From: Schizophyllum amplum
Lineage: Eukaryota > Basidiomycota > Agaricomycetes > Agaricales > Schizophyllaceae
Direction of reading: 5' to 3'
NCBI GenBank assembly: GCA_007026445.1
Contig: VDMD01000019.1
Location: forward strand, 186,001-250,000
Length of the DNA: 64,000 nucleotides
The translations under genes and the position numbers were made by a program. Positions 2,419-31,890 of the stretch are shown here, piece by piece (position 1 is the first letter of the stretch; each line of letters opens with the position of its first letter). Under the pieces are notes generated by a model. It searched no databases. It had not been told where the DNA came from and was given only the letters and a program-made list of their open reading frames with translations.

Positions 2419-2420
2419 TC

Positions 2421-10806: not shown

Positions 10807-10873
10807 AAAATCACCTTAGCTACCACTTTCCAACAGTTTCTGTATGCTAAATAGCCTTTTTCTCAGACACTAT
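10807..10873 (+). repeat. Left terminal inverted repeat of the putative KDZ element
   Basis: 67 bp, inverted match to 31823-31890 with one substitution and one 1-base indel. Outer end AAAATCACC; inner end CAGACACTAT. Homology stops sharply on both sides. Confidence 0.85.
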
Positions 10874-12243
10874 CAAGTTCTGGGCTATTCTACATATGTC
10901 TTGGGCTTGTCTTAGGTCTAACATCAGACATCTCTTGGGCTTGTCTTGGGTCTAATGTCAGACAATTCTGGCACACTTTTATAACTTTTGCCATAGATCA
11001 ACAGCCGCAGGAATTTCTTCAATGGTCCCAAAAGACATTTCTATTGTTTTTTCCTATGTACATTATGCCATTGACGTATGCTTCTATTGAAATAATCCAA
11101 GAAATGTCTAGCCACCAGAACTGTCTTCGTCTCAGATATTTCTCCCCTTCAGACATCTCTGACCAGTTCAGCATGCAGACCTTTCTGCGTGTCAGAAACA
11201 TCTGTTGCCTTCTCATGTTGGATATCCTGTATCATACTATGCCCAGTACATATAACTCGGGTCATTAACCAACATCAGACAGGTCTGGTATCCTAAGCAC
11301 TTCTCTGGTCTTAGTTTTGTTTTACTCCATAGAAATGTCTGATATCAGCAATGTCTGGTCTCTAGCAGTCTCTGGCGATAAGACATTGCTGCAGAACTAG
11401 CTGGGTGCCGGAAAAAGCTGCCCTTCAGAATAATCTGGACCTCAGTATAAGCTGGACGTCAGTATAATCTGAAGGGCAGCATAATCTGAAGGGCAGCATA
11501 ATCTGGTCCTCAGCATAATCTGGACGTCAGCATAATCTGGATGTCAGCATAATCTGGATGTCAGCATAATCTGGTCCTCGGTATAATCTGGACGTCAGCA
11601 TAATCTGGTCCTCAGTATAATCTAGTCGTCAGCATAATCTGGTCCTCGGTATAATCTGGACGTCAGCATAATCTGGTCCTCAGTATAATCTAGTCGTCAG
11701 CATAATCTGGACGTCAGTATAATCTGGACGTCCAGATTAAGCTATGCTAGAAAACACTGCACCCTACGCTACAGAAAGGGTGTGTAGCCCTAGTAATGTA
11801 TACATATAAAGTCCTATATATATCTGACAATACCCTGTAAATTGTCTTTCCTGATATATCAGTTTTAAATAAACAGCTAACAACTAGCCGTTCTACTTCA
11901 CCTTCCGACACTGACAGGAAATGTCTAACAAACAACACAGACTTCTGACTAAGATCTAGGTAAAATGAGATGGCCAGCATCACTATCAAATACTCAACGC
12001 AACTGAAGTATTCCTACTACAAGTAGTATACTAATGAATATTAAGCATCCAAGAAATACGGCAGTCAAAAAGTTCATCTCAGCAAGCATCTGAGTATAAG
12101 TCCGTGCGTTTACGATATAAAGACGCGGCGGCGGCGGTGGGCAACGAGATGGGATGGGGACGGGTCATGTACAAGAAATGAGTCAGAGGGGGCAGCTACA
12201 TACAACAAGACGGCGCGGCACGTCAACAATGTCCAAGGCCTGT
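10874..12243. other. Left subterminal region, AT-rich, non-coding
   Basis: About 1.4 kb with no supportable gene. It holds many degenerate copies of a palindrome-like motif around CAGACATNTCTGG and the 17-bp tandem array at 11427-11732. Likely a transposase-binding zone (inference). Confidence 0.5.
11427..11732 (+). repeat. Tandem array, 18 units of 17 bp
   Basis: Eighteen contiguous 17-bp units of the form AGYATAATCTGGNCNTC (for example AGCATAATCTGGACGTC). Higher-order order is visible: the pair AGCATAATCTGGTCCTC then AGTATAATCTAGTCGTC recurs. The array ends against CCAGATTAAGCTATGC. Confidence 0.95.
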
Positions 12244-15200
12244 TCAGCGAGGGTCGTAGTTAGAGCGACGGGGCGGTGCGATGGCACGACGACCCAGCTC
12301 GTGCTGCAGCATGCGGCAGTAGAATATTGCCACCTGCTGCTCCAGCCACTCGAAGACCTTGTACGACATCCGATCCTGCCGCGCAGTGGCCGCCACGTCC
12401 AGCCACAATCGGGGGCTCCAAAGCTCCATCACACGGGCCAGCGCCTTGACGTAGCGAGCACGCACACGCCAGTCGTCTGCCACCAGTCCGACGTTCACCA
12501 TCCCTAAGCCTCTCACCGTCAGGACGTCCCCTTCAAAGAACGTGGAGCTCTCGAAGACTGGTTGCAGGCGCATCGCCTCCTGCGCGGCCGTCAAGATGCA
12601 GGTGCGTGCCCGTCGGTCCATAGGCAGTGGCAGGGGTGTAACCCCGGGTGTCGCCGTGCTGACCCCCACCCTGACCCCGGAGGGTTTCAACCCCTGGCGT
12701 GGGGTCAGGGTTTCCGTAGGGTTGGCAGGGGTTGGGGTCAACCCCCGGGTTTTTATTCATTTTTCACTGTTTACATCCTCTATTGTATATTTAAAGTACA
12801 GATATAGAGCCCTAAGACAATGTATAGGTTCAAATATATCTAGATTGTCAAGTAACAGCACCTAAGGTACAAACAAACCTTGTGTAATGCACGTCTACGC
12901 ACCCACATCTGAGTCTAGGGTTTTTCCGGGGTGCCGGGGGGTTGGACCACAGCAACCCGCACCCTGACCCCAGCGGGGTGGGGTGTGTAACCCTGCGGGG
13001 TTGCCTCAACCCCTGCCATTCCCTATCGGTCCAAGTCGAGGAGGTCCTTGCGCCAAGCGACTTCCTGCAGACGATAGAGCAGGCTCTTCAAGGTGTTCGG
13101 GGACGGCATGCAACCAGGCTGCACCACTTCGCCAAGCACCCGGTACGGCAGCACAAGGCGGCTCTCTATCGACCGTAGGTTCAGCCGATCTCCGAACACC
13201 TTCTGCAGCTCGTCCATAGCGAACGCTATGGGACCTCCCTGCCTAGCGTGCATGGTCTGTTGGGCCGAAAGGACGTTCCTCCAGTCCTTCGTAAACAGCT
13301 TCCAGGGTGCCTCTCCAACGGCCTGCGTAAAAGCGGGGTCCAAGTCGCGGTCCATGTCAAACATCCGTGCGTGGGACAACACCGCCGACTCCATTTGCAC
13401 CCACATGTGGACGCACGAGGCCCGCTTCTCCAGCGCCTCAGCACCCACGACAAGGTGGGGAGCGGGAAAGCACCTTCCCGGATCTCCTGACCGGTTGTCC
13501 TTGGGCCAGGCCTGGCGGTACTGGCTGATTGCCCTAGTCCACGCCTGAGTCGAAGTCGGCAACATTTTGCGATGGATGTCTAAAAAGAAACCGTAAGATA
13601 AGATGCCGCTTTTTAGTTATTGATTGCACTTACTGACAGTTGTCGCTGCTGACTGCGGGAGCGACGCACTCACCGGGGAGGCCGCAGATGTCAACGGGAC
13701 CCCTGAAGGTGCAGAGGTCGTTGTCGGTGTTGATGTTGTCGAAGTTGACGTTGTTGATGTTGATGGTGCCAATGTCGATGCTGTCGCCGTCGCTGCGGCC
13801 GAAGTCGATGCTGTTGCTGCCGATGCTGTCGCCGTCGCTGAGGCCAACGTTGACGTTGTCGCCGTTGCTGAGGCCGAAGTCGAGGGCTCAATCTGAGTCG
13901 CTTCCTGCATTACGACGTCCTCGGAAGCCAGTGGCACTTCGCCGCCAGGGTCAGAGTCCTGGTAGTCCTCGAGGACAGTTGGGTCGGAGGGCGGGGCGTC
14001 GTACTCGCCAAGAACACCCGATTCGATGCCGGAGGCCTCGTTTTCCTCGACGGCATGCTCTACGCTGCCGGCGTCTTGAGGCTTCGGCTCCCGCTGAACG
14101 CTCATCAGGAAATCCGGCTTCTGAAGCCGGGCGTTGACAAAATGACTGTACAGCTCGCAGTCGGCAAGGGGGTCAACACCCATCGTAACACTGTCGACCT
14201 TCAGATCCAAAGGTGCGTTGATGCTGAACCGGAGCGAGGAGTAGGCGTGCAGCCGCGCCAGCATCTTCTTGCCGTCATCAACCTTCCCCTCGTAGATGCG
14301 GGGAGGGTCGCGAGGATGGCGGTCAATGATCGCTGCCGCGGACACAGGCGTCATGCCTGGGAGGGTCTCGATCCGCGGCAGTCTGTCGTACTCCCCGCGC
14401 TCGAGAAGTTCCTCGAATCCTCCGATACCCGTGTACAGACGGACATACCACACAGGGATGCGGCGGGTCGCAAACCAAAACATGTCGTCCTCGTTGGTTA
14501 CGACAGCGCCCATCCACCAGAGCGTGGGAAGCCCTGGTGCTGGCGTGCTTTCCTCCGGTGCGACCCAGACCTTCATCAAGTTCATGAGGCAGGTTGCTTC
14601 CAGCCAAAGACGCTGAAGCTCCCTCGCCATGATGATGCCATGGAAGAGCTCCACGCCGCGCACCTGCATCAGGCCGAATAGGTGACCCAGCGACACCTCC
14701 AGTCCGCAAGCCAAGTAGTGAGGGCGCGGGTTCTGCCCGTCGGGATCGTCCAGGAGTCTCCCGCCGATATCGTTCAGATAATCCTTCAAACCCTGTCGGA
14801 CTTCTCGAATGGGTTGTTTGAGCCTGTGCGCGATGTCCACCTTCAGGACTACCAGGTCGCCGTCGAGACTCTCCCGAATCCCAGATGCGGGCTGGAACCA
14901 CGTCGACGGGTCCTCCCAGAACACTTGATCCTCGTGGTCGGCGCGCGGTGGGCGTGCCGGTATGCAGGCAAGGTGGACGGTCGAAAACTCATCCCGTCGC
15001 ACATACTGAGGAACTTGTGTAAAGTCCTCCAGTCCCAGGCGGGAATCGGAGCGCGTCTTGATGCGCACTGTCGAGCCGGGGCTTCGGATGGGAGGGATGG
15101 TCCCGGAATTTGGTGTCAGGACAATGTGCGTTCCGTCCTCGGTCAGGGCCCCACTTTGGTCGTTTTGGCAGAAGTCTTCTCCTAATTCATTCTTCAGTAG

Positions 15201-15864
15201 ACGCTCCAGCTCACATCGCTTGAATACTTACTCTTGGGTAAGGTGCGGAAGAAATCCAACTGCTTTCCCGCCGCAAAGACAAACATATCCCCCGGCGGAT
15301 AGCGCGAGGCCTCTTCCCGTGACAAAGGATATTGGCAAGGTACGAGGTGCCGCTCGTACATCGTCAGGAGCTCGGCCATATGGCATGGCCCCCACCAACA
15401 CTTGATCATCGTTTTCTGTGTCGCTTGTTGTCAGAAGCCGAGAAGATAAACGTCAATTCACTCACCTCGCGCGCCACGGGCTCACTTGGATTGTTGCGTT
15501 CGGGGGCAGACGAATTGGCGGGCGCACGCATCGCCGCAAGATCCGTCTCACAGTCCTCGCCCGAAGCACCGATTGAGGGAGATATGCGTGGGCGGGCGGG
15601 AGTCCCAGAAGATGACGAGGGCGCCAGTTCCGCACGAGCCTCTTCCTCATCATCGGAGATGTCGGTAAGCGTCGACATCGAATGATCGTCACCGTCGCTC
15701 GACGCGGTGCCAGTCTCATCCGGTGAGGGGCACCGTGAGCCCTCCGGGGCTTCGGTCCCAGGTTCATTGGGACTCGCGCCGCCCGCGTCCAAAAGGCCGA
15801 CCGGGGATCCTGGCAAAGACGTCGTAGCGCCTCGAGATGCGGGTGTGGTCGTCGGAGAGTCCAT
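12244..15864 (-). pseudogene. Large cargo gene of unknown function in the KDZ element, broken by a hAT MITE
   Basis: ATG at 15862-15864. Exon 1 is Ser/Pro/Asp-rich; an intron (GTGAGT...CAG) joins it to KTMIKCWWGPCHMAELL; then another intron (GTAAGT...) leads into a large exon (to about 13625) with the segments VPQYVRRDEF, WFATRRIPVWYVR, RDPPRIYEGKVDDGKKMLA and a Ser/Thr/Ala low-complexity tail. A further intron (GTAAGT...TTTTTAG) joins the last exon, about 13573-12244, starting IHRKMLPTSTQAW. In that exon a 405-bp hAT-like insertion (12621-13025) adds an immediate stop after LLDLDR; deleting it with one 8-bp duplication restores LLDLDR followed by RARTCIL in frame. I recognise the overall type from agaric transposon-rich regions but know no function. 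Transcribed away from the KDZ transposase. Confidence 0.6.
12621..13025. mobile_element. Non-autonomous hAT element (MITE), 405 bp
   Basis: The ends are TAGGCAGTGGCAGGGG on the left and the inverse of TAGGGAATGGCAGGGG on the right, flanked by perfect 8-bp duplications TCGGTCCA (12613-12620 and 13026-13033). The 8-bp duplication and TAGGN start are hAT hallmarks. No ORF of its own; G/C-rich subterminal ACCCTGACCCC-type repeats on both sides of an AT-rich middle. The left end matches the end of the hAT element at 43971 at 30 of the first 32 bases. Confidence 0.9.
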
Positions 15865-15948
15865 TGAGACAGGGCTGTAAAGCACACCGTTCGTGTTCGA
15901 GAGCGGAGTCTGTGAAGGTTGTCAGTGTGACATGTACGCCGAACGCGC

Positions 15949-16260
15949 CGAACGCGGATAGCCCGAGATCAACGTGCTCGGTTCGGCTGTATGTAGGGTT
16001 GCGGAGGAAGGAGGTGGTGAGCGGCACACGCACGCCGAACGCGGATAACCCAAGATCAGCGTGCGTGGTTGGGGTAAAGAGGGTGCTAGGGAGGAGGGAG
16101 GGCATGAGCACGACACGCACACCGAACGCGGATAACCCAAAATCGGCGTGCGCGGTCGGGGTGAAGAGGGTGCTAGGGAGGATGGAGGACATGGGCACGA
16201 CACGCACACCGAACGCGGATAACCCAAGATCGGCGTGCGCGGTCGGGGTGGGGAGGGGAG
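15949..16260 (+). repeat. 87-bp tandem repeat, about 3.6 units
   Basis: The landmark CGAACGCGGATA recurs at 15949, 16036, 16123 and 16210, exactly 87 bp apart. Because 87 is divisible by three, all units stay in the same frame and give 29-residue periodic translations on the minus strand. It sits just upstream of the 12244-15864 gene. Confidence 0.9.
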
Positions 16261-17099
16261 GGGACTAAGGAGTAAGGACAGAACGTACAAATTCGAGCGC
16301 GTAGTCTGTGAATGTGGTAAGTAGGCAGTCCGTATGGGCGTCAAATACACACCTTGCAGATGCGGCAAGTGCCAATTTCCCCAAGATGGCTGTGTGTCCT
16401 TTGCTGTACAAGGACGGGCAACACAGGCGTCGGCGCTTAACGCTCGAGTATGCTGCGAAGGGCGCGGGGCGGTAGAAGAGGGCGGGCGGAGGCGGAGGAG
16501 ACGGCAGGTGAGAGCGCAGCAGGAGCACGGGAGGGGCGCACGGGGCGGCAGTGGAGGCGTTCGCTGGGCGAGGATTGGAGGTGAGAGACAGGCTGGGGAA
16601 GCGTGGGAGGCGCCGTTCGGACATCTGGGCCGATGGCCGGTGGCGTCGTTGATGCTTGTTTGGTTACAGCCTTACGATGTTGTTGTTTGACACCAAGGCC
16701 GCCCCTTCAGAAATGTCTGCCTCCAGCAGTTTCTGCTTCACCCTTGCCGTCGACATCACTGTCGAGGTCCTCGCTCCCTTTCCCCACCATCCGTTGCCTG
16801 TCGTTGCCATCGCCATCGCTTGCTCTCCCGCTCGCGGGTCCCATCTGTCGCCGCCGCCGCCGTTGATCGCCTCACACCACCCCAAGCTTACAGACCATTG
16901 TGGAGGCGGGCGCGCGGTCATTGTGCGCTATGTATTGCGGTGCGTGCTCACTACGCTGCTCGCACACCAGCCCTGACGTGCTCACGCCCACAGAACCCGC
17001 GGCCATCTCTCCCGAGGTGTGTCGCCTCTCCTCTCCTCTCCACCCCTCCCCTTTCCCTTACCCTCCTCCACCTCCCTCTGGCTTACCCCCCGCTGCGGC

Positions 17100-17660
17100 T
17101 GCCGGCCTCGATTTGTTCGCGACCGTCAGTCGCTGCACTCTGCAGCTCGCCCCCCCCCCCCCCCCCCCCGCCGCTACGACCGGCGACCTCCCTGCTGCTG
17201 CCGGCCTTGATCTGTTCGCGACCGGCAGTCGCGGGGCGGCGGCGCACTCCCGGTCGCGCACCTGCGCGCTGGCCTCGATTTGTTCGCGACCGGCAGTCGC
17301 GGGGCGGCGGCGCACTCCCGGTCGCGCGCCTGCGCGCTGGCCTCGATTTGTTCGCGACCGGCAGTCGCGGGGCGGCGGCGCTCTCCCGGTCGCGCGCCTG
17401 CGCGCTCCCTCGCGCTGCTCGACCTCCCTGCTGCTGCCGGCCTTGATCTGTTCGCGACCGGCAGTCGTGGCGCGCGTCCGTCACTGCGCCCCCTCGCACC
17501 CTCATGCGATCGGCGGCTTGGCTGCTTCTGGCGGCCTCGATTTGTTCGCGACCAGCAGTCGCGGCGCGCGCCGCATCTCGCGCTCCATCGCGCACCACAA
17601 TCACCGACTTCGCTACTGCCGCCGGCCTCGATTTGTTCGCGACCGGCAGCTGTAGCGCTT
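17100..17660 (+). repeat. G/C-rich minisatellite with seven copies of a 30-bp core
   Basis: A core around GATTTGTTCGCGACCGGCAG occurs seven times (near 17110, 17208, 17275, 17343, 17443, 17538 and 17628). Three central units are spaced 67-68 bp apart and almost identical. It includes an 18-20 base C run near 17151-17169. Upstream of the KDZ transposase. Confidence 0.85.
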
Positions 17661-17974
17661 GCGGTGTATTGTACTCGTGCATCTCGGTATGTGCTTCGTT
17701 TAACTTACATCATCACACCGCTTGCTCATTGGCTATCTTTATCTGGATGTCGACATAGTAACACTCGCACACTATACCCCGCTATGAAATAACAGGCTGC
17801 ATTGACGAGATGGTAAGTACATGTGCGCGACAACGGCTTACCTGCTCAGCATCCTCACAGTCAGGCGGTAGCCGGTCTGCCATGCTAGAGCCGCCGGACC
17901 CTGTGCGTACACGAGGATCTACGTACATATACTGGCTGCCTCAGGCTTGGTTGCCCCCCCTCTCTTTTCACTCA

Positions 17975-20900
17975 ATGGGCCGCCGTCGTGTGACGGGTGC
18001 CGAGCGCGCAAGCGCTCTGGCGCAAACACAGTCTGATCCAGGATCGGCGGGCGCTCCAGCACCACCGGCCACTCCACCTCGCCGCATACATGCTTTGCCG
18101 CAAACGCCTGTCAGGCCCGCGAAGAACCGAGTTGCCCCCACCCAGACGCCCCAGTCCATCGACATCCGGGCAGGCAACAAGCGTCGGCGCGCCAGCAGTC
18201 CAATCCACGCCATATACGGGCTCAGTCGGGGGTGGCAGCAGCCGGCGCGCGCTATCAATCTGCTGAGTCAGATGCCGCCAGGTCCGACTTCAGCGTCCGC
18301 GCAGGCGCAGCGGCAGGCGGACAAAAACGACCCCCCTGAAACCGAAACAGACGACGAGGACCGCACTCAACATGCGCGCGAGCGCTATAGGGAGAAGCGT
18401 GCCGATACCGCGCATCGCTGGCAGTTCGAAGTCCTGCCAGACATCCGCGCGACTTACATGAGGTTGATGGAAGAAACCGAGAACTTGCGCTACCCTCCTC
18501 GCCGATCGACGCCTGAGCAAAGGCCGTGTACTTGTGGTAATACGTACGGTCGCAAGCTCTCTGTGATGGTACTGAGAACACTGGGTGCACACGTTGTTCA
18601 AGCTGCGAATGGTGTGTGACTGACTGCACCAACAGCCGTGGAGCGAATGCATCTAACATGCTGCAAGTGCCAGCCAGCTGGTAGGCAGCTCATGGAGATT
18701 GGTCTGTTTCCTTGCGCTCCGTATCGGCCGTCTTTGGCTGTTGACTTGAACGTGCTCGACTTTGCACGTCTGGTTTTTCTGAACGTCGCGCCAAACGTCA
18801 CCGCCTGGTGCAGGGCCATGGAGGCATTTTTGTTGGTCCGTGGCCACAAGCTTAACTACTCCGTGAGTACGCCCTCTTAATCGCTGTTCTCTGACATCTA
18901 ACCCTAAGGGCATAATGTAGGACAATCTTAGACGTCGATTTGGATCTGCGTTGCTCTGGTACACTCAGCTGTACAATCTGGTGCAGGCGCGTGTCGATCG
19001 TGTCCTAGCGGTCGCTCGCGGCATTGCCACCAGGAAACAGGAGCAGGAGGCGATGAGACACACACCGTTGTCTTCGCCGCCTCCGTCCTCTCCACCTGCA
19101 TCCTCCTCGCCACAGTGCTCTCCGCCATCCTCTCCGTCCCCCAACTCAGCTCCGCTGCCGCCCCCAACATCACCTGATGATGCCGCCTCACCGACACAGA
19201 ACGTCGAGCAGGCACTCAACGCGCCTTCTGACTACCTTCGTGGTCGGTGTCCAGCTTGCTTTGGATCGGCGCGGAGAGAGAGCGCGTGCAGTCCTGATGC
19301 CCCAGATTGTCTTGTTCAGCTTGACGCGTGTTTCACCCAGAAGCACAACCTGCAGAAGCGCGATCCTGTGTTCCTGCACCCCAGCAACATTGTGTTGGCA
19401 GAGGAGGTTTGACAGAGACCGCTGAGCGAGTTGATGCTCTACGCGAGGCATCGCGGCGTCCTGCTGTTCGGAAGAGGCGCAGAACGGCTAGAGAGTCTGT
19501 TAAAGCCAACGACGACGAACATGATGGGTTGCTACTGCCGGCGGAGGTGCTGCGCAACTGTGAGGATAGCTTTAAGGCGGCGCAGCAGTCCATCACCAAG
19601 GCGAACACGACGCGGCACGATGTGACCGCAGCTATGGCTCTGCTTTGTCGCCACGACATTCCGCTTTTCTGGGCCGACATGACCAGCGCGGGCGGGAAGC
19701 AGTACTATGTGGTGGCTCTCATGGACAGTTTCATCGCTCATCTACCTTTGAGCTGGACCATCGGGTTCATGTACGACATCGCATGCCAGATTCACGCCAG
19801 TGCGGTCAAACACAACATTTTTGAAGGCTATCTGCATCGCCTGCGTTTCGCGGTGTCCGTCTTCCACGCTTACGGGCACGACTGGCCGTGCCAGTTGGTC
19901 TACCACCCCCGCAAGCGCGTTGGGTTTGGCTTGACGGATGGCGAGGGGTGTGAACGCTTTTGGTATTCCATCAGCCGACTCATTCCGTATCTGCGAGTTG
20001 CAGGAGTGAGTGGATTTATGACGGTTTGAGTCTGCGCTAATGCAGCCCTAGTTTCACCTCCGACAGTACACGCTGAACAGCCAGTTTGACCATGCGACGG
20101 CGGTCAGCCTTGAAAACGCTGCTTCATGGCTTGCGCGCAAGCGTGCGTTGGTGTCTGCGAAGAGGCGGGAGGCTCGTGGTGAACTAGAAGCCTGCGGCGC
20201 TGTCGGGAAACGGCATACGTTTCTGCGAGAGCAGTGGAGTGCTCAAATCGCCCATCAAACACAGGAAGCTCCGCGTGAGTGAGCCTCAAGTTCAGCTGAG
20301 TTTGCTCTTACCTTCACACAGGTCAAAGTCGGACACGCGGCCGTACCGAAGTGGAATTAGCGATTGATCTTCGCCTGTCCGTTGACGACGCGCGCAAGGG
20401 CATGGAGAGGGCCAAAAGCCGACGCTCGCCAGGCAACCTTGAATCTCGAGCAGAAGTTGACGCGGCCACTGCGACTCACAAACTCGCCGTCAAGAAATAC
20501 AACCGCAAGGTTCGACAGCTCGGCGTGGACTCCTCAACTCAGCTGAACACGCTTCTTCACAACAAAACACTGTTGTGTCGTGCCAACGCGCTCGCTCTCC
20601 TTCGCCGCGCGCAAACCGCGATCCTGAGGCGGAAATTGGAGCTCGAAAGGGTGTCACACTTACAGGGCAGTAAAAACGGCGGTCAGTCCTCTGCACGGCT
20701 TGCGACACGCACGTATTGATGATGAGCAGAGAACTCTCTGCGTAAACACACAAAGTCGAACATCCAGCGTCGGGAGGGTACGGTTAAAGGCATTGTCAGC
20801 AAATACAATAACGCCTGCCGCCAGCTGGGAGTTAAGATTCGAGCGCAGGTCAATCGTCGTGGCTCCTGCCGCATACGCCCACTGGCACCGCTTCCCACCA

Positions 20901-21514
20901 CGGGCATATGGAATCTGGACGTCGACAATCCTTGCTGGGACGACCTGCGGTTGGACCTGGATGATGAAGACGAGGCCGCACCTTGGATGGTGGATCCCAA
21001 AGTTCGTCGGGCGATACGAGCGCTGCTTGTGGTGGATCGATGCGAGGAGGAAGACACACGCCTGCATCATGAAGAAGCCAACCTTTTGCAGTGGTTTGGA
21101 GAGGAATGGACAGCCGTTCAACAGGCGTTCAAGGACGCCCTAAAATTACCAGGTAAAGCATATTTGTTTGATATGAAGGCTGGCAACGCTGACGCGTGGG
21201 GTGTAGACGCGCCCGCACTGCAGAACCAGCTCACGCTCCGAAAAGACAGCCTCCTGCGGCTAGCAGTGAAGTGGATTAAGCACATTCCGCGACCGCCTGG
21301 CCCTAGCGACAAGGAGATACAGGTGGCAAGTGCAACTTGGGCCGCAGCGTCGTGCGATGCGCCGGGTGGACGAACAGGACGCCGTGGTAGCTGCTCAACG
21401 GATGGGGAGGAAGAGGAGGAGGAGGGCCCTGGCGTAGGTGGGGAGATAGACCACTACGACGAGGCTGGTGAGGAGATGCTCGACGAGGACTCGTCCGCGG
21501 AAGATGTGGAGTAG
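17975..21514 (+). CDS. KDZ-family DNA transposase, multi-exon, one apparent frameshift
   Basis: ATG at 17975. Exons: 17975-18536; 18636-18862; 18921 to about 20005; 20052-20274; 20322 to about 20670; about 20735-21514. The N-terminus MGRRRVTGAERASA and the CxC zinc cluster (PCTC joined by splicing to AVERMHLTCCKC) followed by GLFPCAPYRPSLAVDLN match the KDZ-associated domain. DNLRRRFGSALLWY, CPACFG and LDACFTQKHN follow. Presumed catalytic acidic residues are Asp at 19323, Asp in MYDIACQ at 19775 and Glu in GEGCERFW at 19952. The C-terminal part is a basic coiled region ending in an acidic tail. At 19407-19411 the frame slips by one base (GAGGAGGTTTGACAG), with a stop TGA if read through; downstream sequence is otherwise intact. 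That makes it either a recent pseudogene or a sequence error. It would excise and integrate the surrounding element. Confidence 0.9.
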
Positions 21515-21619
21515 GCTACTTAAGGACGCAGGGCCACGCGCTCTTTCTGTACCCGTAACAGATCAAGAGTTTCACGCCATGGCCGCAGGTTGTTTTGGTA
21601 CGCCTCATGGCAGGCGTTT

Positions 21620-21630
21620 ACATATATAAG
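21620..21630 (+). promoter_or_regulatory. TATA-like promoter element of the TET/JBP gene
   Basis: ACATATATAAG, 38 bp before the proposed ATG at 21668. The identical 11-mer precedes the next gene (23572-23582). Confidence 0.6.
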
Positions 21631-21667
21631 CTGACTGCGAAGCGTAGGCAGCGTGCGTCTTCCCACC

Positions 21668-23401: not shown

Positions 23402-23571
23402 GCAGCCTATTACGTAGGGTGCCAATATCAAGTCTGAGACATCTGCGCAGATGAGCAAAGGTTGCAGGCGGAAGATGTCCCCCAGTCGCCGCGCACGTTT
23501 CGAAGCGCCTGTGGCTCCGCCGATCAACTCGACCCTGGCAGCAAGACTAAACAAATGCGCCGACGCCGGCT

Positions 23572-23582
23572 ACATATATAAG
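23572..23582 (+). promoter_or_regulatory. TATA-like promoter element of the first tandem paralogue
   Basis: ACATATATAAG, 56 bp before the ATG at 23638; same 11-mer as at 21620-21630. Confidence 0.55.
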
Positions 23583-23637
23583 ACTTTACCGTTTGACGGC
23601 GATGCTGCCCAGCGAATCAACTCCTCCCTCAGGCCCA

Positions 23638-24875
23638 ATGTCGTCCCCAGCGCCCCTTCCCCCGCCGTCGTCAAGCCCGGCGCCATCGTCACCGCCACCC
23701 GCGGACTCGGGCCTCCCTTCCTCGCCCGACCTGCGACCAATCATATACTCTAGGTCTGCGCTATCGGCCGACATGCAAGCCCTGGAGGACGACGTGCTGT
23801 TCCTATCGGCGTGTATGACGAGCCTCATGCTGTCGACTGGGTTCGGCAGGGGCATATCCTGTACGTGGCCCTCCCAGGTCTTCGACCGGCCGCTGACAGT
23901 CGACTAGGGAGCCGAGCCTACACCGTAGAGGTGTTCCGCCTTGCCACCGCTCTACGGGCCAAGAGATACACAGACCTACACTTGCCCCCACGCACGCTGT
24001 GCCCACCATGGTCGTTCAACAGGGAGTGCCGGAGTCAGACAGCGGCGTACCTTAAGCGAGGCACGCATGAGGATCTGGCGAAGTGGCGAGCCGAAGCATA
24101 CGCGCGCCAGCGCATTGACTTCAAGGGTGATCGCATCGTCACCGTTGTTCTGCATGTGGAGGGCGACCTTGGCCAGGTAAGTTGCCGCTTGTGATCGACA
24201 GCCGTACGCTGACGAATGGGTTATCGCAAGGGGAGGCAGGTCTCTATCCAGATGCACGCCTTCAGCCATATCATTGTGCCCGGCAACTACACACGCGCGC
24301 TCACCAGCAAGGGCATCAACGTGGCCGAAACCTCGCCGTTCTACCGCCTACCTAACAAGGCGCTGCTGCGGATGGACTGGATGGATACCATACCTGCGCC
24401 ACTCCCAGAGTCAGGCCGAGCAGTTGAGTTGGTCATACGCCGGAAGCGGTTCATGGCCATACCTCGCCACATCATACAGAGGCAGCGCACGCCCAGGTTT
24501 GTACATGTACGCCTACACTCTCTGGTATGTTGGAGGCATTCACTGCCGCCCGCTATGTCTGACAGCCTGCAGCACAGAAAGAACCTCTTCCGGGCTGAAC
24601 TCCCGGTACTCGTCGGCGAATGGCTCCTTATGAATGGTGATGCGGGCGTTCCGGAATTTAGGGGATTCACGGTACCCGCGGGCTGCATTTTGTTTCGGTC
24701 GACTTTCGAGAATCCCTACGCCCATGTAGAAACGTACCCAGGGGAGCCCTTGGCAGTCCCCGATTTGGGATGTTTAGAGATGAGGTTCGTCGTTGTATGC
24801 AAACGGTGCTACAAGATGGGAGGGTCGATCACCACCATTCACTCGACTCAACATTACTGTGGGATGGCTGCCTAG
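23638..24875 (+). CDS. Unrecognised protein family, tandem copy A
   Basis: ATG at 23638 begins a Pro/Ser-rich leader, then RPIIYSRSALSADM. Later exons (joined by short introns near 23860-23910, 24178-24215 and 24525-24575) encode YTVEVFRLATALRAKRYTDL, GDRIVTVVLHVEGD, RRSMDTIPAPLP-type sequence and the shared C-terminal block ELPVLVGEWLLMN ... FTVPAGCILF ... LEMRFVVVCKRCYKMGG. That block aligns by eye with copies B (YFVLCRACVHLAG) and C (YFVLCRACVHKVG), so the three are a tandem paralogue set. No signal peptide or membrane span is obvious. The strand-rich C-terminus with a conserved CXXC pair could be a small beta-fold; I assign no function. Exon borders are approximate. Confidence 0.6.
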
Positions 24876-25227
24876 TATTACCAACCCCACATTTCCTTTA
24901 TCTACTGCAAGTTCCTTAATCCACACAACGAGGAGTTCCGTTGCCTTGCCGAGTTACATACGTTATGACCGATTTATTCAACGGCCGTCTCATCATAGAC
25001 CACTTTAACATTTGCCTATTTACATGCCTATCTAATGAACGGATGAAGCCAGAGTGGTTGGTTCCTGCTGTTGGAAGACATACAGGTCACTGAACACAAT
25101 TCCAGGAGCCACCCAAGGTGGCTATGCGATGACGCGTGGCCTCAACACGAGGCGGCTCTGTGCCATCGATCGATCGAGATCATGCGCTGCCTCCCTTGTC
25201 TCCTGCCACCACAGGCTGCTGCTACCA

Positions 25228-26376
25228 ATGTCAGTGCGACGGCCGCCTCCATCTTGCCGCCCCCCCCCCTCCTTTCCAGGACGGCACGCACTACACGGAA
25301 AGGAAAAGAGATTTCACCGTCACGCCATTCGCCAGGATGACGGCCGAGGTCGCTTCCGCGAACGAGTCCGATCCCCAACGCATGTGGCGAATCATCTTCT
25401 ACCACTTGTTAAAAGCCGGCCACGGCTTTCCGAGAAACTGTACGTCTCAATTAACGTTTGGGTGCAGATATCGGGCTGACCAAGGTCGACAAGGGACTCT
25501 TGACTACACTCGCCAGGTGATCAAGGCCTTGACCGCGGACAACGACGCCGCAAGCAAGTACGAGGAGGAGCTGGAGAAATGGCGAGCCCCACCGCAGGAT
25601 GGTGGTGAGGACGCCAGCCAGCAGGAGGAGGGAATGGTCAAAGTAATGCTGGTCGACCGAACCCGAGCGGTGAGTTGGCGATTTTCTCTATTGGATGACC
25701 GCTGATGCAGTGTGTGCCTGTAGACCCCCCCAATCACCCTGTGGACGCGCGCCGTAGACGGTGTCGTCGTGTTAGCGGAACACGCGCGCTTCTTCGCTGC
25801 TCAAGGGGTTGACCTGGCGAATAGCAAGCTGTGGGTTGAACAAGGTGGAATGCACGGGTTCACCACCGATTGGTTGGAGCCTCTCGTCCCTGACTGGCAG
25901 AAGCACATTTCGGGCTCTATTTCCCTCCCCTCCTGGCGACCGCAACCACTGATTCACGTCGATTATCGGCTCACTTGGCCGTTCAAGATATACATCAACA
26001 TTCATCACTTTGTGAGCCTCTTTTCAATCGCAGGTGACGGCTGACCCATGCATTGTAGGCATTCAAATGGGTAATACAGGCGGCGGTGCCACACATGGAG
26101 GGCTGGCACTCACTAGCCTCAGTTGAGCAGCTACTTGCAGGGCCCGGCTTCCAGGACTTGGCGTGCGGCGTGATTGTGAGGAATCATCCTTGGGCTGGCT
26201 CGACGTTCAAGGAGGTCCAGATGGATGAGATGATTTACATACCGCCGGGCACCGCCCCCACATGGTGCCTTCAGTACTTTGTGCTTTGTCGAGCCTGCGT
26301 CCATCTGGCCGGCGTCGCGGAACCGTGGCTCAAATACCGAACTCATTGTTGTCTTGAAAAAGCAGAGTCGGCGTAG
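25228..26376 (+). CDS. Unrecognised protein family, tandem copy B (start uncertain)
   Basis: The body reads PPPPFQDGTHYTE, then TPFARMTAEVASANE, shared with copy C (TPFARMVAKFASQGAN). After introns it continues VVLAEHARFFAAQGVDL, GFTTDWLEPLVPDW, and the block VPHMEGWHSLASVEQLLAG ... EVQMDEMIYIPPG ... YFVLCRACVHLAG. The nearest ATG (25228) is one frame away from the body; the two meet at the C-run 25260-25269, so either that homopolymer is mis-sized, the start is elsewhere, or this copy is dead. Introns are inferred near 25445-25465, 25670-25725 and 26010-26060. Function unknown. Confidence 0.55.
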
Positions 26377-26648
26377 GGGCAACGCTGCTGCGTAGGGGTG
26401 CCGACGGCCGGTGAACTTTACATTTGTATCACATATCACAGCCTGCAACTACAACATACATAGCACTATACACCCTCGCGTCTGACCAATTCTCTACGCC
26501 TCTCACACCAGAGAAAGCGTCCAGAGAAGGCTGCAAGGCCACTGCCACACACGCGTACACAGTGCACGTGGCACATGGCACGCTGATCGATCGGAAGCGC
26601 GCCGCCTCCCGCGTTCCACCACCTTCCACCACCGACATTGCAGCTGCC

Positions 26649-27808
26649 ATGGACCTTTCGACTCTTCCGATCTCACTGCCTCCCCCCCCTCCACCGTTCA
26701 CCCAGGCGGCCCTTGCCGAGGTGAAAACCGTCATGGTCTATGGGGAGACACCCTTTGCGCGTATGGTGGCCAAATTCGCTTCCCAAGGAGCGAACGAGCG
26801 GCATGTGATGGAGGCGATGTTCCTCGACTTTCTAATTTCGGGGGAGGGACTTGCGCCTTTTTGTGCGTTGACCTGCATGTTGAACGTGTCAATTGGCTGA
26901 TCAGTATGGCCAGGGAGCATGGACTATGTCCGGCAACTTCTGGAGCTGGTGCAGGGCTATGACAGCCTCGCCCGCGACTACCATATGCAGTGGCTCAGAT
27001 GGCGCGCACCAGGCCCGAGGCTGCGACCACAAGGGAAAATCAGCGTTGAGGTGCAGGATCATTCCACACTGGACGGTAAAGTGCGCACCTGCTCTCTTTC
27101 TTCCATCCCACCACCCCAAACTCACGCCGCCGGTGTTTGCAGGTGCAGCAGTTGTTGTTTGGTGCAACGATTGAGGGCAGCGGGGGCGTCGTACTGGCGA
27201 GCTATGCTAGATTCTTCGTCAGCAACGGCATCGACCCCACGACATCAGTGCCCTGGGTGCACGTCAGCCCTAAGGGTCAGCGCGGCTTTGTTGCCAGCTG
27301 GTTGGAGCCCCTCGTACCTTACGAGGACGTTCTCAGGGTCCGCGTCTACCCCAGTGATGGTGACCGCGGTCAGGAATTCTACCCAAAGATCGAGAGGAGG
27401 CTGACCACGGAGAACGTGTACATCGTCATGGGCTGCTTCGTGAGTAGCCATTGCCCATTCAATCCGCCATAGCTTACCCATTAGCCACAGTACCTGGAGG
27501 ATTATATCCAGATCGTAGTGCCGCTCATGCCGGGTGGCTGGCACAGTATTGACTCTGTGGAGCAGCTGCTCTCCAAGGATGGGTACTACGAGTCAGGACG
27601 TGGCATGCTGGTGAGGGAGTCGCCGTTTTGTAAAGGGGTGTACAAGGAAGTCCAGCAGGACGAGGTGCTGCTTCTGCCGCCGCGCTGGCCCCCCTCCCGC
27701 TCCCTGGTATACTTTGTGCTCTGCCGAGCTTGCGTCCACAAGGTTGGAATCGACGCGGTGGTGCCGTCCTACACCGAGCATGTATGCCGCCCAGACGAGT
27801 CGACTTAG
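26649..27808 (+). CDS. Unrecognised protein family, tandem copy C
   Basis: ATG at 26649: MDLSTLPISLPPPPPPFTQ, then VKTVMVYGETPFARMVAKFAS. Introns near 26863-26915, 27075-27142 and 27439-27488 (GTGAGTAGCC...CAG) join DYVRQLLELVQGYDS, GVVLASYARFFVSNGID, GFVASWLEPLVPYEDV and the block VVPLMPGGWHSIDSVEQLLS ... EVQQDEVLLLPP ... YFVLCRACVHKVG. This is the best preserved of the three copies: start and body are in one frame. It shares more with copy B than with copy A, consistent with a later duplication of B and C. No known domain recognised. Confidence 0.62.
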
Positions 27809-28078
27809 TTCTTATATGAATGTAAAGCTCATCAGTGTACATTGTCTTGACCAGAATTGAAGCGCATAGTCATTGGTCCTTTGGCCTCTTGTTAACTTGC
27901 TGAAACAACGAATTAGGCATTTACCTCATCCAGCGGGGCGACGACTGCTGGGATGTAGGGAATGTACCTTTTCGACAAGACGGCAAGCACGAGGTTTGAT
28001 GGCCGTCAGAGCTTCTGACCGACGATCCAGACAATTACGACCTCCTCCTTCCTCCCACCCTCATCGCCAACGACCTGG

Positions 28079-31000
28079 ATGGCGAACACCCGTCGCATGG
28101 CAGCCCAAGCTGCAGCTGCAGCCGCCGCGCCTCACGCTGCCACACGCTCGAAAACCAGAGACCGGACGGGTCCGGGTGCGGGAGGGCAGCGCACCGCGGA
28201 TGCTCCTACTGGCAAGCAGACTTCGACAAAGCCTGTCGTCAATAAGGTCGGCCCTCCTGGTGGCAAGGGCAAGATTACCGGCACAAAGAAGGCGAATGGC
28301 AACGCGGCCAAGGAACCTGCTCGGGGCGGGAACGACACCGCTGTTATGGACGTTGACGAGCCGCACATTGCAGCGAGCAAGACACCGAGGCCTGCACCGG
28401 CGGGCAAGACGGGTGGCCAGCGCAGCCAAGTTGTGCCGGGGGTGAGTGTGCAAAGCTGGAGCACGTATAGCGACTGACGATATGCATTTCAGGTCACCTA
28501 CGCTCATGCAGCAAGTTCTGCCAGCCGCTCTGTTCCTGCGCAGCCGCCCCTGTCCCCGGCGCCTCCGTCTGTCGTGCGACGCCCGGGACAGGAGGATCAC
28601 ACGGAGGTCGTGACCTACCCTTACGTGGACATACCCAAGAACCCTAGGCCGCCGACCGCCCACCCTGCGCGCCACCTCAGGCCTGCCGATGAAGCGACGC
28701 CTGCGCCCGCCGCACCCTCCACAAAACCCAACGCCCGGCAGGTCGGCACGAGTGACCGGCGTGCCACGCTGGAGAAGCTGGTTGAGACCAAGCGGAAGAG
28801 GAACGGCGCGCGCGAGGTTGACCGCGGCTCTGTGTCATCAACTGAGAGCAGCGGGTGCGAGGAACCTCACCCGCCTGTCAAGAAGCCGAGGCATGCCAAG
28901 CCGAGTTTGCCGTCCACACCCGAGCCTCGGACCCAGATGAAAACCAAGCGCTCCTTCGCGTCCCTTGACGGCCCCGGCTCAGTGCCGTCCTCTGAAGAAC
29001 CGACGTCTCTAACGAGAGTGAAGAAGAAGTCCAAGCGGAGCAACGACAGCGACACACCGTCACCCTTGCCGCTGCCACCAGGCAAGGGCAAGGGGCGCGC
29101 GGCGGAGCCCCAACGGCCGAAGAAGGACACGAAGGCTATCATGCAGCGTATTGCGCGACAGCAGTACGAGGGCGCGGTCGGCGGCTCGGTTGAGGGCCAT
29201 AGTGGCAGCAGTGTGGACAGCGTGGCTGATGAGTACCTCGACGCCTGGGAGGGTGCCAATGCGCCAGTCCCCTCGAACGCTGCAGGGAGTTTGAAACCGA
29301 AGCCGGCCCCCAAGCCAGCACCGAAGAAGAAGTCCGCAGATGCTGCCGCGTCAAACCCTTTGGCAGCCGCAGGGGGCTCCAAACCGAAGCCCGCCCCCAA
29401 GCCAGCGCCGAAGAAGACGTCCGCAGACACCGCCGCGTCAAACCCTTTGGCAGCCGCAGGGAGCTCCAAACCGAAGCCTGCTGCAAAGGCAGCGCCGAAG
29501 AAGACATCTGCGGATGCCAACGGCCAGAAGAGGAAGCCCGGCCCTGTGCCCGACGATGTGCGGCTGGCGGCGCGGACGCTCGGAATGAAGTACCTGGCAG
29601 ATCTGTCCGCGCTTGCATTCGAAAAGCACGTACCAGTCGAAGAGCTGTTTGTGCTTGAAGGGTGGATGCATCCGGACCATTCGCGGCCCCGGGTCGAGCA
29701 GCGCTCCAACATGTTCCGAAGCTGGTATTCGGCAATGCACGCTGGCGAGAATTGTAAGCAAAGTTGGGAGGCGACGCACGACGACTTGCGCTAATCCACT
29801 TCACAGTGTCAAAGCGAGAACTTCAAGAGGCGTCTGACGCAGCGTATGAGCAGAAAATGGCGGAGCTTGGCCCTGACGCAACGCCTGACGCTATCGCCGA
29901 GCACCTCAAGGAGGCGCTGATATATTCGGCCTACATTTGTAGCGAGAAGCAGAAGAACGGCTCGAGGAATAAGAGGACCCGCCATCTCCGGCGAACTGCA
30001 GACCATTACTCCCGCATGGCGCTGGCCACTGTCCTCGAGGAGGGTATGACGCCTGTGGGGTGGATTGTCGACACACACGGGCGCATGGGCGAGTCCGCGG
30101 GGGCGGTCATGTTCAGAGGAGGGCCGGCGTTCAAGGGTATGTTGACGCACTTCAAGGATGACTTTGAGCAGGGGCTGGACTTTGTTGATCGCATACTACG
30201 GTTCGTCCTTGTACCCTTCTTTCTTTGACGCGTTGAACTTACCCTCTTGCCAGTCACAGCCAACTCACGGGGGACGGGACCATGGCGTTTGTCGAGCCTG
30301 AAAACTGCCTGTACGATCCCAAGCGAGACTGGACAGATAAGGAGAGGAAACACCCCAACCCGGGCGACCACGCGCTGGCGCTGATTCGTCAAATGACTCG
30401 AGACGATCTCAGTAAGCTAGTTTGTCTTTGTTACAGCTTAGGGTGCTTGCTGAATCATCACATAGCCTTAAGATCTCTTGAAGCGAAAGAGCCCTTGAGC
30501 AAGAACGGGAAACCTGGTGATATCATCCGACAATTCCCTCGGCGGCACTTTCCCGACCTCGCTTACCGCTTGTCATTAAGGCTTGTCGGGTGGCCGGAGG
30601 CGTGGACTGACGCTATGCCCCTTGGCGACCAGTACAATTACAAGCCGAGCGGCGATGGGGTGTCAGCAAAAGCCCAAGAGCTCTTGAGGAGACGGAAGAC
30701 GGCAGAGGACAGGATCAACTCTGAAGGCTTGCGCGGGGCGGAGGCGGAGGCTGTCCTCCTCGAGTGCCGTGCTCCCGCGATAGTATCCCTATCCAAGGCC
30801 GACTGCGTTGGAAAGAGCGTGGCTGAGCTGAAACGCACTGCAGTTGTGGAAGACGAGGAGGGCAATCCTCTCATGACGTTGCGGAAGTGCTCGAACGCGT
30901 ACAAACTCGACAAGGACAACGGCCAGGATACACGGGTGAAGTGGCAGGAGTTTTGGGGTCCAGAGCGGAGGTCGGGATACGTAACTGACTCCGACGCTGA

Positions 31001-31358
31001 TGACCAGGCTGGCAAGGCTTCAAAGAAGAAGAAATTGAGGTCGAAGGTGCAGGGAAAGCAGAGGGCTTCGACGAAGGACGATGGAGGCAGCGGCTCCGAC
31101 TCCGACTCTTCTGGCAGCTCTGACAAGGCACCCCAGAAGATGGTGGAGCCACGGGTGAAGAAGGGGGAGCCAAAGTGGGTGGATGTGACAGACGACGAGG
31201 ACGAGGACGAGGATGACACCGATCTGGATGAGGAGGACGAGAATGGCGATGCGCCCACGTTGCAGCAGAAGGGGAAGGGGAGGCAGAGAATTGACGAGCT
31301 AGAGGGGGATGAGGAGGATGACGATGAGAATGATGACGATGACGAGGGCGAGTATTAG
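28079..31358 (+). CDS. Lys/Pro/acidic-rich multi-exon cargo gene, conserved transposon-associated type
   Basis: ATG at 28079. Exons about 28079-28440, 28493-29754, 29806-30198 and 30255-31358, the last with an in-frame 54-nt intron at about 30408-30461 (GTAAGC...TAG). The N-terminal third is a basic disordered region with nuclear-type signals and three copies of a 29-residue KPKPAPKPAPKK-containing repeat (29294-29520). Then comes a folded block: LGMKYLADLSALAFEKH, FRSWYSAMHA, GMTPVGWIVDTHG and GGPAFKGMLTHFKDDFEQG, followed by RHFPDLAYRLSLRLVGWP and a highly acidic C-terminus (Asp/Glu runs). The intermediate motifs resemble an unnamed family frequent near basidiomycete transposons. It is the last gene before the right inverted repeat, in the same orientation as the transposase. 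A truncated, damaged duplicate lies at 62341-64000. Function unknown. Confidence 0.68.
29294..29520 (+). repeat. 87-bp coding repeat (29 residues), 2.6 units
   Basis: Units begin at 29294, 29381 and 29468, each opening KPKPAPKPAPKK or a variant. One unit is missing from the duplicate at 62341-64000. Confidence 0.9.
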
Positions 31359-31822
31359 AGCACGGACTCTGGTGGTGGACACTCTTTTAGACATCATATT
31401 TATCACTGGAACACCTTTAACGACCATTCATAATCAAGTCTACACAGGATTAAGACAAAAACTGCCAGATGCCTACGCTATTAAGTCAGTCAAGTGATAT
31501 TTGAGTAGTCAGACATGTTTGGTCAGACCTTGAGGGATCAGGTGTGTGTGGACTCAGTAAAATCTGGGTACATATATCGCTGGAATAATAAACTTATGGA
31601 AAAGCGGAAATGTCTATAACCAGAATTTGCTGAGCTGTCAGAACTGGTACAGATATTGCTGGGGATATAAACTTCTGGAGGGCGGAAATGTCTGGTAAAC
31701 AGATTTTGCTGAGCTGGCAGAACTGTCTGGGGATATAAATGTCTGTGCACAGACAGTTCTGCACGTCCAGAAGAAGTCTCAGACAGATCTGTGTGTAGAC
31801 ATTTCTACTCCTCCAGACACTT
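31359..31822. other. Right subterminal region of the putative KDZ element
   Basis: Non-coding, AT-rich, with repeated GGGGATATAAACTTCTGG-like and TTTGCTGAGCTG segments and many TGTCTG/CAGACA motifs that echo the left subterminal zone. Confidence 0.5.
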
Positions 31823-31890
31823 ATAGTGTCTGAGAAAAAGGCTATTTAGCATACAGAAACTGTTGGAAAGTGGTAGCTAAAGGTGACTTT
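31823..31890 (-). repeat. Right terminal inverted repeat of the putative KDZ element
   Basis: 68 bp; inverted match to 10807-10873 with one substitution and one indel. The copia coding frame to its right ends within 30 bp of it. Confidence 0.85.

What the first reader, a model, noticed from the sequence alone, without database searches (positions are those of the whole stretch)
10807..31890. A ~21 kb KDZ 'giant' transposon with defined inverted ends, TET/JBP and undescribed cargo
Near-identical 67/68-bp inverted repeats bracket a KDZ transposase, a complete TET/JBP dioxygenase, three tandem copies of an unknown family and two large unknown genes. KDZ-TET linkage in basidiomycetes is established; a unit with recognisable ends and this full cargo would define the element's limits and tie the unknown families to it. 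A DNA-modifying enzyme carried by a transposon could alter methylation-based silencing of its own copies.
Basis: partly seen in the sequence, partly recalled or inferred. Interest (0 to 1): 0.88.

Follow-up and report, generated by a model that had tools for sequence, protein, structure and literature searches.

The report
Fungal KDZ transposon carrying TET enzyme
In a wood-decay mushroom there is a jumping gene of about 20,000 letters that carries a probable DNA-methylation-editing enzyme plus three unstudied gene families; divergent relatives with the same gene order, matching ends and clean insertion scars indicate that it moves as one unit.

Summary
The 67/68-bp inverted repeats lie just inside the true ends of a 21,119-bp element (window 10789-31907). 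The genome (probably Schizophyllum amplum) holds a collinear copy (C46) and three divergent relatives (C79, C279, C101b) with the same order of five gene families: unknown 'Minus', KDZ transposase, TET/JBP-like dioxygenase, a CxxC..H family (three tandem copies here, one found in each relative) and a large charged protein. Both ends were identified for five elements; four have exact 7-bp target duplications. Uninterrupted target sites were read for C279 (98%) and for the window's right end (11 places reported, three read). So the unknown genes are a conserved core, not cargo. Corrections: the window copy is a chimera; its right flank pairs with the left end on contig C261 and its left flank with no right end found (ectopic recombination or, more likely, misassembly). 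Its Minus gene is cut by a 405-bp insertion. Complete TET+ Kyakuja transposons with 7-bp duplications were published in 2025 (PMC12730594), so this is a variant of a known kind with inverted repeats, another 3' terminus and extra families. TET identity rests on motifs and weak Pfam hits to paralogues; escape from silencing is inferred.

The parts
10789..31907 (+). The element, 21,119 bp, 5'-CAGCTTCGG...CCTAAGGAG-3'
   Evidence: Alignment of 8 genomic ends, collinearity with C46:155042-181746 (aligned blocks 95.1-99.8% identical), exact boundaries
10789..10883 (+). Left terminus and left terminal inverted repeat
   Evidence: left-type end at 4 loci (C101, C46, C68, C261)
31813..31907 (-). Right terminus and right terminal inverted repeat
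   Evidence: right-type end at 4 places (C101 twice, C46, C1)
10782..10788 (+). Left flank heptamer AGGTATT, without a partner at the right end of this copy
31908..31914 (+). Right flank heptamer TGGTACC, identical to the left flank of the C261 copy; one copy at the junction in the three uninterrupted repeat copies read
11358..11765 (.). 17-bp tandem repeat array in the left subterminal region; CAGACA motifs are enriched in both 800-bp ends
   Evidence: (CAGACA 7 and 8 in the end 800 bp against 0.42 per 800 bp inside)
12621..13025 (.). 405-bp insertion, inverted ends by eye, 8-bp duplication TCGGTCCA (12613-12620 / 13026-13033), MITE-like; absent from the C46, C68 and C261 copies
12244..15864 (-). 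Unknown gene 1 ('Minus'), 895 aa in this copy, truncated by the insertion; in C46 the frame continues through the stretch homologous to 12244-12620
   Evidence: homologue P0003 of S. fasciatum, 27% identity
17046..17649 (.). Direct repeats of 71-84 bp between the divergent Minus and KDZ genes
   Evidence: families D4, D5
17882..21514 (+). KDZ transposase gene model, 7 exons, 1054 aa
   Evidence: PF18758 E 5.9e-45; CxC1 E 2.4e-4 and CxC2 E 1.8e-3, both under the curated cut-off
21668..23401 (+). TET/JBP-like dioxygenase gene model, 5 exons, 488 aa; HRD...H...R motif
   Evidence: Pfam support only through paralogues
23773..24875 (+). Tandem family copy A, of the three copies the one most like the members in C79, C279 and C101b; ends in CxxC...HxC; 5' end uncertain
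25337..26376 (+). Tandem family copy B; 5' end uncertain
26649..27808 (+). Tandem family copy C
28079..31358 (+). Unknown gene 2 ('Cterm') model, 1003 aa; basic low-complexity N-terminal part, conserved central domain, acidic tail
62340..64000 (+). Start of a truncated right-end fragment of the same element (continues to about C101:251076), flank TTATCGA

Best explanation
The finding is a TET-carrying DNA transposon of the KDZ group, probably Kyakuja-like, about 20 kb long. Its own KDZ transposase moves it by recognising the terminal inverted repeats and subterminal repeats, and insertion duplicates 7 bp of target. Shown: unit structure, ends, target duplications, empty target sites, and the same order of five gene families (Minus, KDZ, TET/JBP-like, CxxC family, Cterm) in the focal element and three divergent relatives in one genome. 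Inferred: cut-and-paste chemistry and end recognition, from the transposase family; oxidation of methylated bases on the element by the TET/JBP-like enzyme, so that new copies escape methylation-based silencing; the other three families acting as accessory DNA- or chromatin-binding proteins of the same cycle. The copy in the window joins a left part and a right part from two different insertions and its minus-strand gene is broken, so it is probably not an autonomous copy.
For: Collinear copy C46:155042-181746, with a nested LTR element there and the 405-bp insertion here as the large differences. Exact 7-bp duplications in 4 of 5 pairs of ends: C46 ATACGTA, C79 CACCTTG, C279 CGTGGAG, C101b TACGGCG. 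Matching termini CAGCyyCGG / CCTAAGkAG in 5 of 5. C279 empty site at C1:3495938-3496179, 98% over the joined flanks, one CGTGGAG at the junction. C261-left plus window-right flanks contiguous at 11 places at 93-97%; the 3 of 11 read have one TGGTACC at the junction. Same gene order in C79, C279, C101b and the focal element; Minus matches the three at E 6.3e-32 or better, and Cterm has its best match in each at 2.3e-21 to 5.2e-13. CxxC family: 7 of 7 members recovered by leave-one-out profiles at E 6.5e-17 to 5.8e-37, best control 3.3e-4. No premature stop in any of the 14 gene comparisons between copies, and 0 differences in 489 TET codons between window and C46. Excess CpG transitions between copies, 52%, 51% and 66% against 28%, 29% and 20% expected, and 12 C5-methylase family matches in the genome, so a substrate is plausible.
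Against: The window copy itself lacks a target duplication. TET assignment is weak by sequence: PF12851 does not match the window, no PDB match for the exon at E<=1 or for the gene and two profiles at E<=10, and both structure predictions failed (pLDDT 42.7 and 41.7). CpG bias also occurs in an LTR element (50% against 33%, P 0.022) and in another repeat (54% against 23%, P 0.001), so it is not specific to this element. Kyakuja placement was not tested by a tree, and two features published for the Laccaria Kyakuja families, a 3'-TG end and no inverted repeats, are not met. In C46, C79, C279 and C101b the base after the right duplicate is C, so an 8-bp duplication would also fit these four; the TGGTACC empty sites, with A there, favour 7. 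pN/pS near 1 for Cterm against the decayed C1 copy gives no support for selection there. Methylation, expression and activity were not measured.
Confidence: 0.87

Rival explanations
1. The mismatch of flanks in the window copy is an assembly artefact: near-identical copies of about 21 kb were joined wrongly, so the sequence left of 10789 and right of 31907 is not adjacent in the living genome.
For: Window right flank and C261 left flank are the two sides of one target (TGGTACC). Contigs C261 and C68 both end inside the element. C210 carries the same right flank as C79 at 100%, a sign of duplicated or unresolved sequence. None of the four right ends found has AGGTATT next to it.
Against: No direct sign of a misjoin was seen and no reads were available. 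From 19289 rightwards the window agrees with C46 at 10 of 10 positions where C46 and C261 differ; if the right half is the C261 insertion, the switch must lie right of about 23.7 kb, which fits a misjoin and a real exchange equally.
Confidence: 0.62
2. The flank mismatch is real: ectopic recombination between two element copies exchanged halves and produced a chromosomal rearrangement.
For: Same flank data. The window copy is 92-96% like C46 in its leftmost 1.5 kb and 99.2-100% from about 19.8 kb to the right end, by 500-bp blocks, a mosaic that exchange or conversion could leave.
Against: The left part is non-coding and rich in tandem repeats, so it may simply diverge faster; contig ends inside two sister copies make an artefact simpler.
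Confidence: 0.35
3. The region is a chance cluster or nested pile of separate elements and host genes that happens to lie between two copies of a terminal repeat.
For: The region is rich in repeats.
Against: Collinear second copy, four elements with the same gene order, exact 7-bp duplications and empty sites.
Confidence: 0.02
4. The TET/JBP-like enzyme acts on another substrate (6-methyladenine, thymine, RNA) or serves target recognition rather than removal of 5-methylcytosine.
For: By gapless count from the HxD motif, the positions of CcTET Gly331 and Asp337 (numbers and roles from PMC12730594) are Asn and Cys in 10 of 10 aligned rows; Asp337 is reported there as needed for 5mC but not for 6mA activity.
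Against: The count is gapless, and no alignment to CcTET could be made. CpG decay suggests cytosine methylation in these copies.
Confidence: 0.3

Closest known systems
TET+ Kyakuja transposons of Agaricomycotina (Kojima 2025, PMC12730594; outline, whole-text parts 1-4 of 7, figure legends and search passages seen; supplement not seen)
   Same: KDZ transposase with a TET/JBP gene between defined ends, 7-bp target duplications, 5'-CA terminus, mushroom host
   Different: The two Laccaria families described have 5'-CA..TG-3' termini and no inverted repeats; here 5'-CA..AG-3' with inverted repeats of 67-138 bp. The three extra conserved families are not mentioned in the text seen. 'Schizophyllum' does not occur in its main text.
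KDZ1, KDZ2, KDZ3 of Cryptococcus neoformans (PMC12810828; passages seen)
   Same: KDZ transposase with a CxC1 region, long terminal inverted repeats (139-241 bp)
   Different: About 9.2-11 kb; 8-bp duplications for KDZ1, 4-8 bp for KDZ2 and KDZ3; the passages describe putative transposases and mention no TET gene or extra families
KDZ-TET/JBP associations of Iyer et al. 2014 (recalled; the paper is not held)
   Same: Linkage of TET/JBP genes to KDZ transposases; recalled mention of additional proteins including a divergent HMG domain
   Different: Could not be compared. The Cterm protein could correspond to that HMG protein, but none of 4 members matches an HMG family in Pfam at E<=1
Starship elements of Ascomycota (recalled; for PMC12134995 only the search listing with the start of its abstract was seen)
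   Same: Large multi-gene fungal transposon
   Different: Starships use a tyrosine recombinase and carry variable cargo; here a KDZ transposase and a fixed gene set

Membership tests
KDZ transposons | Transposase with the Kyakuja-Dileera-Zisupton domain | tested here: met
   PF18758 E 5.9e-45, 154 bits against a cut-off of 26.6
KDZ transposons | N-terminal CxC cysteine cluster | tested here: inconclusive
   CxC1 E 2.4e-4, CxC2 E 1.8e-3, both below the curated cut-off
KDZ transposons | Discrete ends and a short target duplication (7-8 bp in the papers seen) | tested here: met
   Exact 7 bp in 4 of 5 pairs of ends, the window copy failing; empty sites read for C279 and for window-right/C261-left
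TET+ Kyakuja (PMC12730594) | 7-bp target duplication | tested here: met
   8 bp would also fit those four, the TGGTACC empty sites favour 7
TET+ Kyakuja (PMC12730594) | 5'-CA..TG-3' termini | tested here: not met
   5'-CA present, 3' end ..AG in 5 of 5 elements with both ends
TET+ Kyakuja (PMC12730594) | No terminal inverted repeats | tested here: not met
   Inverted repeats of 68 nt in the focal element and of 67, 89 and 138 in C79, C279 and C101b
TET+ Kyakuja (PMC12730594) | Transposase groups with Kyakuja in a tree | not testable with these tools
TET/JBP dioxygenases | HxD...H...R motif of 2-oxoglutarate and iron oxygenases | tested here: met
   H54, D56, H107 and R118 invariant in 10 of 10 rows; which residues matter is recalled and from PMC12730594
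TET/JBP dioxygenases | Match to Tet_JBP (PF12851) | tested here: inconclusive
   3 of 9 paralogous exons, best E 3.7e-4, window exon none; in a second scan 3 of 5 paralogous fragments at 0.0014-0.16, under the cut-off; none for the window
TET/JBP dioxygenases | Fold like solved TET enzymes | tested here: inconclusive
   Models of mean pLDDT 42.7 and 41.7, not usable, so no fold search was run
AG-type TET (PMC12730594) | Gly/Ser and Asp at the CcTET 331 and 337 positions | tested here: inconclusive
   Gapless count gives Asn and Cys in 10 of 10 rows, but no alignment to CcTET was possible

The most novel reading that the evidence does not exclude
The conserved five-gene set is a self-contained transposition and epigenetic-escape machine: a KDZ transposase with a TET/JBP enzyme of a new, non-AG type whose substrate differs from the known fungal TET, steered to the element's own ends by the CxxC family and the charged Cterm protein, both unknown families that exist only as transposon genes.
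Probability: 0.2. Interest if true: 0.78.

Novelty: new variant of a known kind. Interest (0 to 1): 0.55.

Why it matters
It gives TET-carrying KDZ elements of one fungus exact ends, target duplications and empty sites, and shows that three unknown gene families are fixed parts of them. That turns 'genes near KDZ' into testable components and supplies a natural system for asking whether a transposon edits its own methylation. It also warns that this assembly may be misjoined at such repeats.

Tried and rejected
Independent clustering rather than a unit: rejected by the collinear copy, matching ends and empty sites. Cargo in the Starship sense: rejected, because the same five families were found in the focal element and in the three divergent relatives fetched; other TET or KDZ loci of the genome were not examined for this. 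HMG identity of the Cterm protein: no Pfam support in 4 members at E<=1. Pfam identity for the Minus gene (5 members) and the CxxC family (7 members): none at E<=1. Homologues in 5.8 billion proteins: CxxC copy C found one protein, of its own genome; Minus found one of its own genome and one of S. fasciatum; Cterm none, not even one of its own genome. That search uses shared words, and for Minus and Cterm only the 7,992 candidates sharing most words were scored, so absence is weak. Fold of the TET domain: two predictions failed. Purifying selection from recent copies: too few differences. Empty sites for C46 and C101b: none found beyond their own flanks; for C79 only a 73% relative at C244 whose junction is not clean. 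Cross-species copies could not be sought: the collections at hand hold no other fungal genomes. Literature searches; by the titles and abstract starts listed, none describes this gene set in Schizophyllum, but the library is partial and the Iyer 2014 paper is not in it.
Full report
What was checked. The reported inverted repeat is real: arms 10816-10883 and 31813-31880, 68 nt, 94% complementary. Used as a query against the window's own genome (49.65 Mb, 309 contigs; the window is C101:186001-250000) it gives 8 matches. Aligning these 8 ends with their flanks shows two end types, left (C101, C46, C68, C261) and right (C101 twice, C46, C1), each conserved outwards to a sharp border. The true ends are therefore window 10789 (CAGCTTCGG...) and 31907 (...CCTAAGGAG), a length of 21,119 bp. 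All 8 ends are joined to element sequence, on C261 after about 350 bp without a match. Two of the 8 (C1, and the one near C101:251000) belong to right-end pieces of about 2.5-2.7 kb.

The unit. The whole element is collinear with C46:155042-181746. The large differences are a 5.9-kb LTR element nested in the C46 copy, of the same family as window 2174-8103, and a 405-bp insertion at 12621-13025 in the window copy with an 8-bp duplication TCGGTCCA. C261 and C68 hold further left parts that run into contig ends. Two predicted proteins of C46 are listed as Schizophyllum amplum on a contig whose length, 668,636, equals that of C46, so the host is taken to be S. amplum.

Genes. A small gene finder of my own, with manual splicing, gave seven models: Minus (-), KDZ transposase, TET/JBP-like, three tandem copies A, B and C of one family, and Cterm. 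Exon borders are predictions, and the 5' ends of A and B are uncertain. KDZ is secure (PF18758, E 5.9e-45). The Minus frame ends inside the 405-bp insertion here, whereas in C46 it continues; by eye the S. fasciatum homologue P0003 carries the matching C-terminal part.

Relatives. Searching the genome with each model gave, counted exon by exon, 58 TET matches, 13 for tandem copy C, 45 for Cterm and 14 for Minus, and 77 KDZ-domain matches. Three regions with the same order were fetched: C79, C279 and C101b, the last in reverse orientation about 4 kb left of the window. Each has its own inverted repeats: C79 1206-1272/21266-21331, C279 65745-65832/85707-85793, C101b 165579-165715/181838-181975, 74-80% identical. 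Each ends in CAGCyyCGG / CCTAAGkAG and is flanked by an exact 7-bp duplication: CACCTTG, CGTGGAG, TACGGCG; the C46 copy has ATACGTA. Of five pairs of ends, four have an exact duplication; the window copy (AGGTATT / TGGTACC) does not. In those four the base after the right duplicate is C, the same as the first base of the element, so 8 bp would also fit; at the TGGTACC site the next base is A in the window flank and in the three empty copies read, and there the C belongs to the element. I therefore take 7.

Gene prediction inside the three relatives found all five families in the same order, some genes being split or fused by the predictor. One member of the tandem family was found in each; among the three focal copies they are closest to A (pairwise E 2.4e-21 to 6.3e-14), while B and C form a second branch with C167. 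Leaving each of seven members out in turn, the profile of the other six recovers it at 6.5e-17 to 5.8e-37; the best of 200 shuffles plus other predicted proteins was 3.3e-4. The C279 member was made from two predicted pieces. Two C and one H column near the end (CxxC...H) are invariant in 7 of 7 rows, a possible zinc site. The 7 contigs with a match to copy C all have a Cterm match within about 6 kb.

Empty sites. Joined flanks of four insertions were searched. The C279 pair is found uninterrupted at C1:3495938-3496179 (98%), with one CGTGGAG at the junction. C79 has only a 73% relative without a clean junction; C46 and C101b have none. The joined left flank of C261 and right flank of the window is found contiguous at 11 places at 93-97%; three of the 11 were read and each holds one TGGTACC at the junction. 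This fixes the window's right end by an empty site and shows that the right end of the window copy and the left end on C261 are the two sides of one insertion. The window's left end belongs to another insertion whose right end is not among the four found. Misassembly is the simpler reading because two sister copies end at contig borders; real ectopic recombination is not excluded. By 500-bp blocks the window is 92-96% like C46 in the leftmost 1.5 kb and 99.2-100% from about 19.8 kb rightwards; from 19289 on it agrees with C46 at 10 of 10 positions where C46 and C261 differ, so the switch between the two insertions would lie right of about 23.7 kb.

TET. Pfam Tet_JBP does not match the window. 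Of 10 aligned exons, the window's and nine paralogues', 3 match Tet_JBP (best 3.7e-4) and 4 match 2OG-FeII_Oxy_3 (best 0.013); the window's matches neither. In a second scan 3 of 5 paralogous fragments matched Tet_JBP at 0.0014 to 0.16. The H, D and H of the iron site and the R are invariant in 10 of 10 rows. No solved structure matches the exon (E<=1), the gene or two profiles (E<=10), and both AlphaFold runs were unusable. I accept TET/JBP on motif and context, not on fold. By gapless count the two residues that PMC12730594 reports as important in CcTET (Gly331, Asp337) are Asn and Cys in all 10 rows; if correct, the enzyme is not a typical AG-type TET.

Footprints. Between the window and C46, C261 and the decayed C1 copy, 35 of 67, 34 of 67 and 40 of 61 transitions lie at CpG, against 28%, 29% and 20% expected (P 2.3e-5, 1.6e-4, 2.5e-14). 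In C1, 34 CpG were lost against 6 in the window. An LTR element shows a weaker excess (18 of 36, P 0.022) and a 1.6-kb repeat another (13 of 24, P 0.001), so repeats in general, not just this one, seem to have been methylated. The genome has 12 C5-methylase family matches. These facts make a target for a demethylating enzyme plausible; they do not show its action. The two 800-bp ends of the focal element carry 7 and 8 CAGACA motifs against 0.42 per 800 bp inside, and those of C101b 12 and 23 CTAGA against 0.15, compatible with transposase-binding arrays; CAGACA is not enriched in C101b, and in C79 and C279 enrichment is weaker.

Known and new. PMC12730594 (parts 1-4 of 7, figure legends and passages seen) already defines complete TET+ transposons, with TET+ Kyakuja in five orders of Agaricomycotina; the two Laccaria families have 7-bp duplications, CA..TG termini and no inverted repeats, and escape from silencing is proposed there. 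KDZ1-3 of Cryptococcus are about 9.2-11 kb with long inverted repeats and 8-bp (4-8 bp) duplications (PMC12810828, passages). The present element shares the 7-bp duplication and the TET gene with the former, the inverted repeats with the latter, and adds three conserved families. I therefore call it a new variant of a known kind.

Noticed in passing
window 2174-8103: LTR retrotransposon with 245-bp LTRs; a copy 99.1% identical is inserted in the C46 copy of the element.
   Followed up: partly
window 47838-48087 and 58567-58816: Second LTR-like direct repeat pair, 250 bp, 99% identical, spacing 10,729 bp, with long minus-strand ORFs between.
   Followed up: no
window 12621-13025: MITE-like 405-bp insertion with 8-bp duplication that truncates the minus-strand gene here; absent from the C46, C68 and C261 copies.
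   Followed up: partly
C101:165569-181986 (left of the window, reverse orientation): A divergent relative of the element with all five gene families lies about 4 kb from the window's left edge.
   Followed up: yes
C1:2165288-2167857 and 2190693-2191567: Two pieces of a decayed copy of the element with repeats between them, showing strong CpG-to-TpG/CpA decay relative to the window.
   Followed up: partly
C210:14038-14165 and C79:21344-21470; C77 and C278: Identical flanks, or KDZ and TET matches with identical scores, on different contigs suggest duplicated or unresolved haplotype contigs in this assembly.
   Followed up: no
C261:9954-11516: 1.56-kb insertion in the C261 copy, also present on C1 at 2176176-2177740.
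   Followed up: partly
C261:13727-14078: About 350 bp with no match to the window element between the left terminal repeat and the rest of the C261 copy.
   Followed up: no
C223:2239606-2239842: The only match over the curated cut-off to Pfam Tet_JBP in the genome; the fetched stretch has no significant match to the element's TET.
   Followed up: no
C77:24501-25350 (L038): A TET-like gene with an open frame of 283 aa and no intron in that stretch, opposite in orientation to a KDZ match 3 kb away, so another architecture exists.
   Followed up: partly
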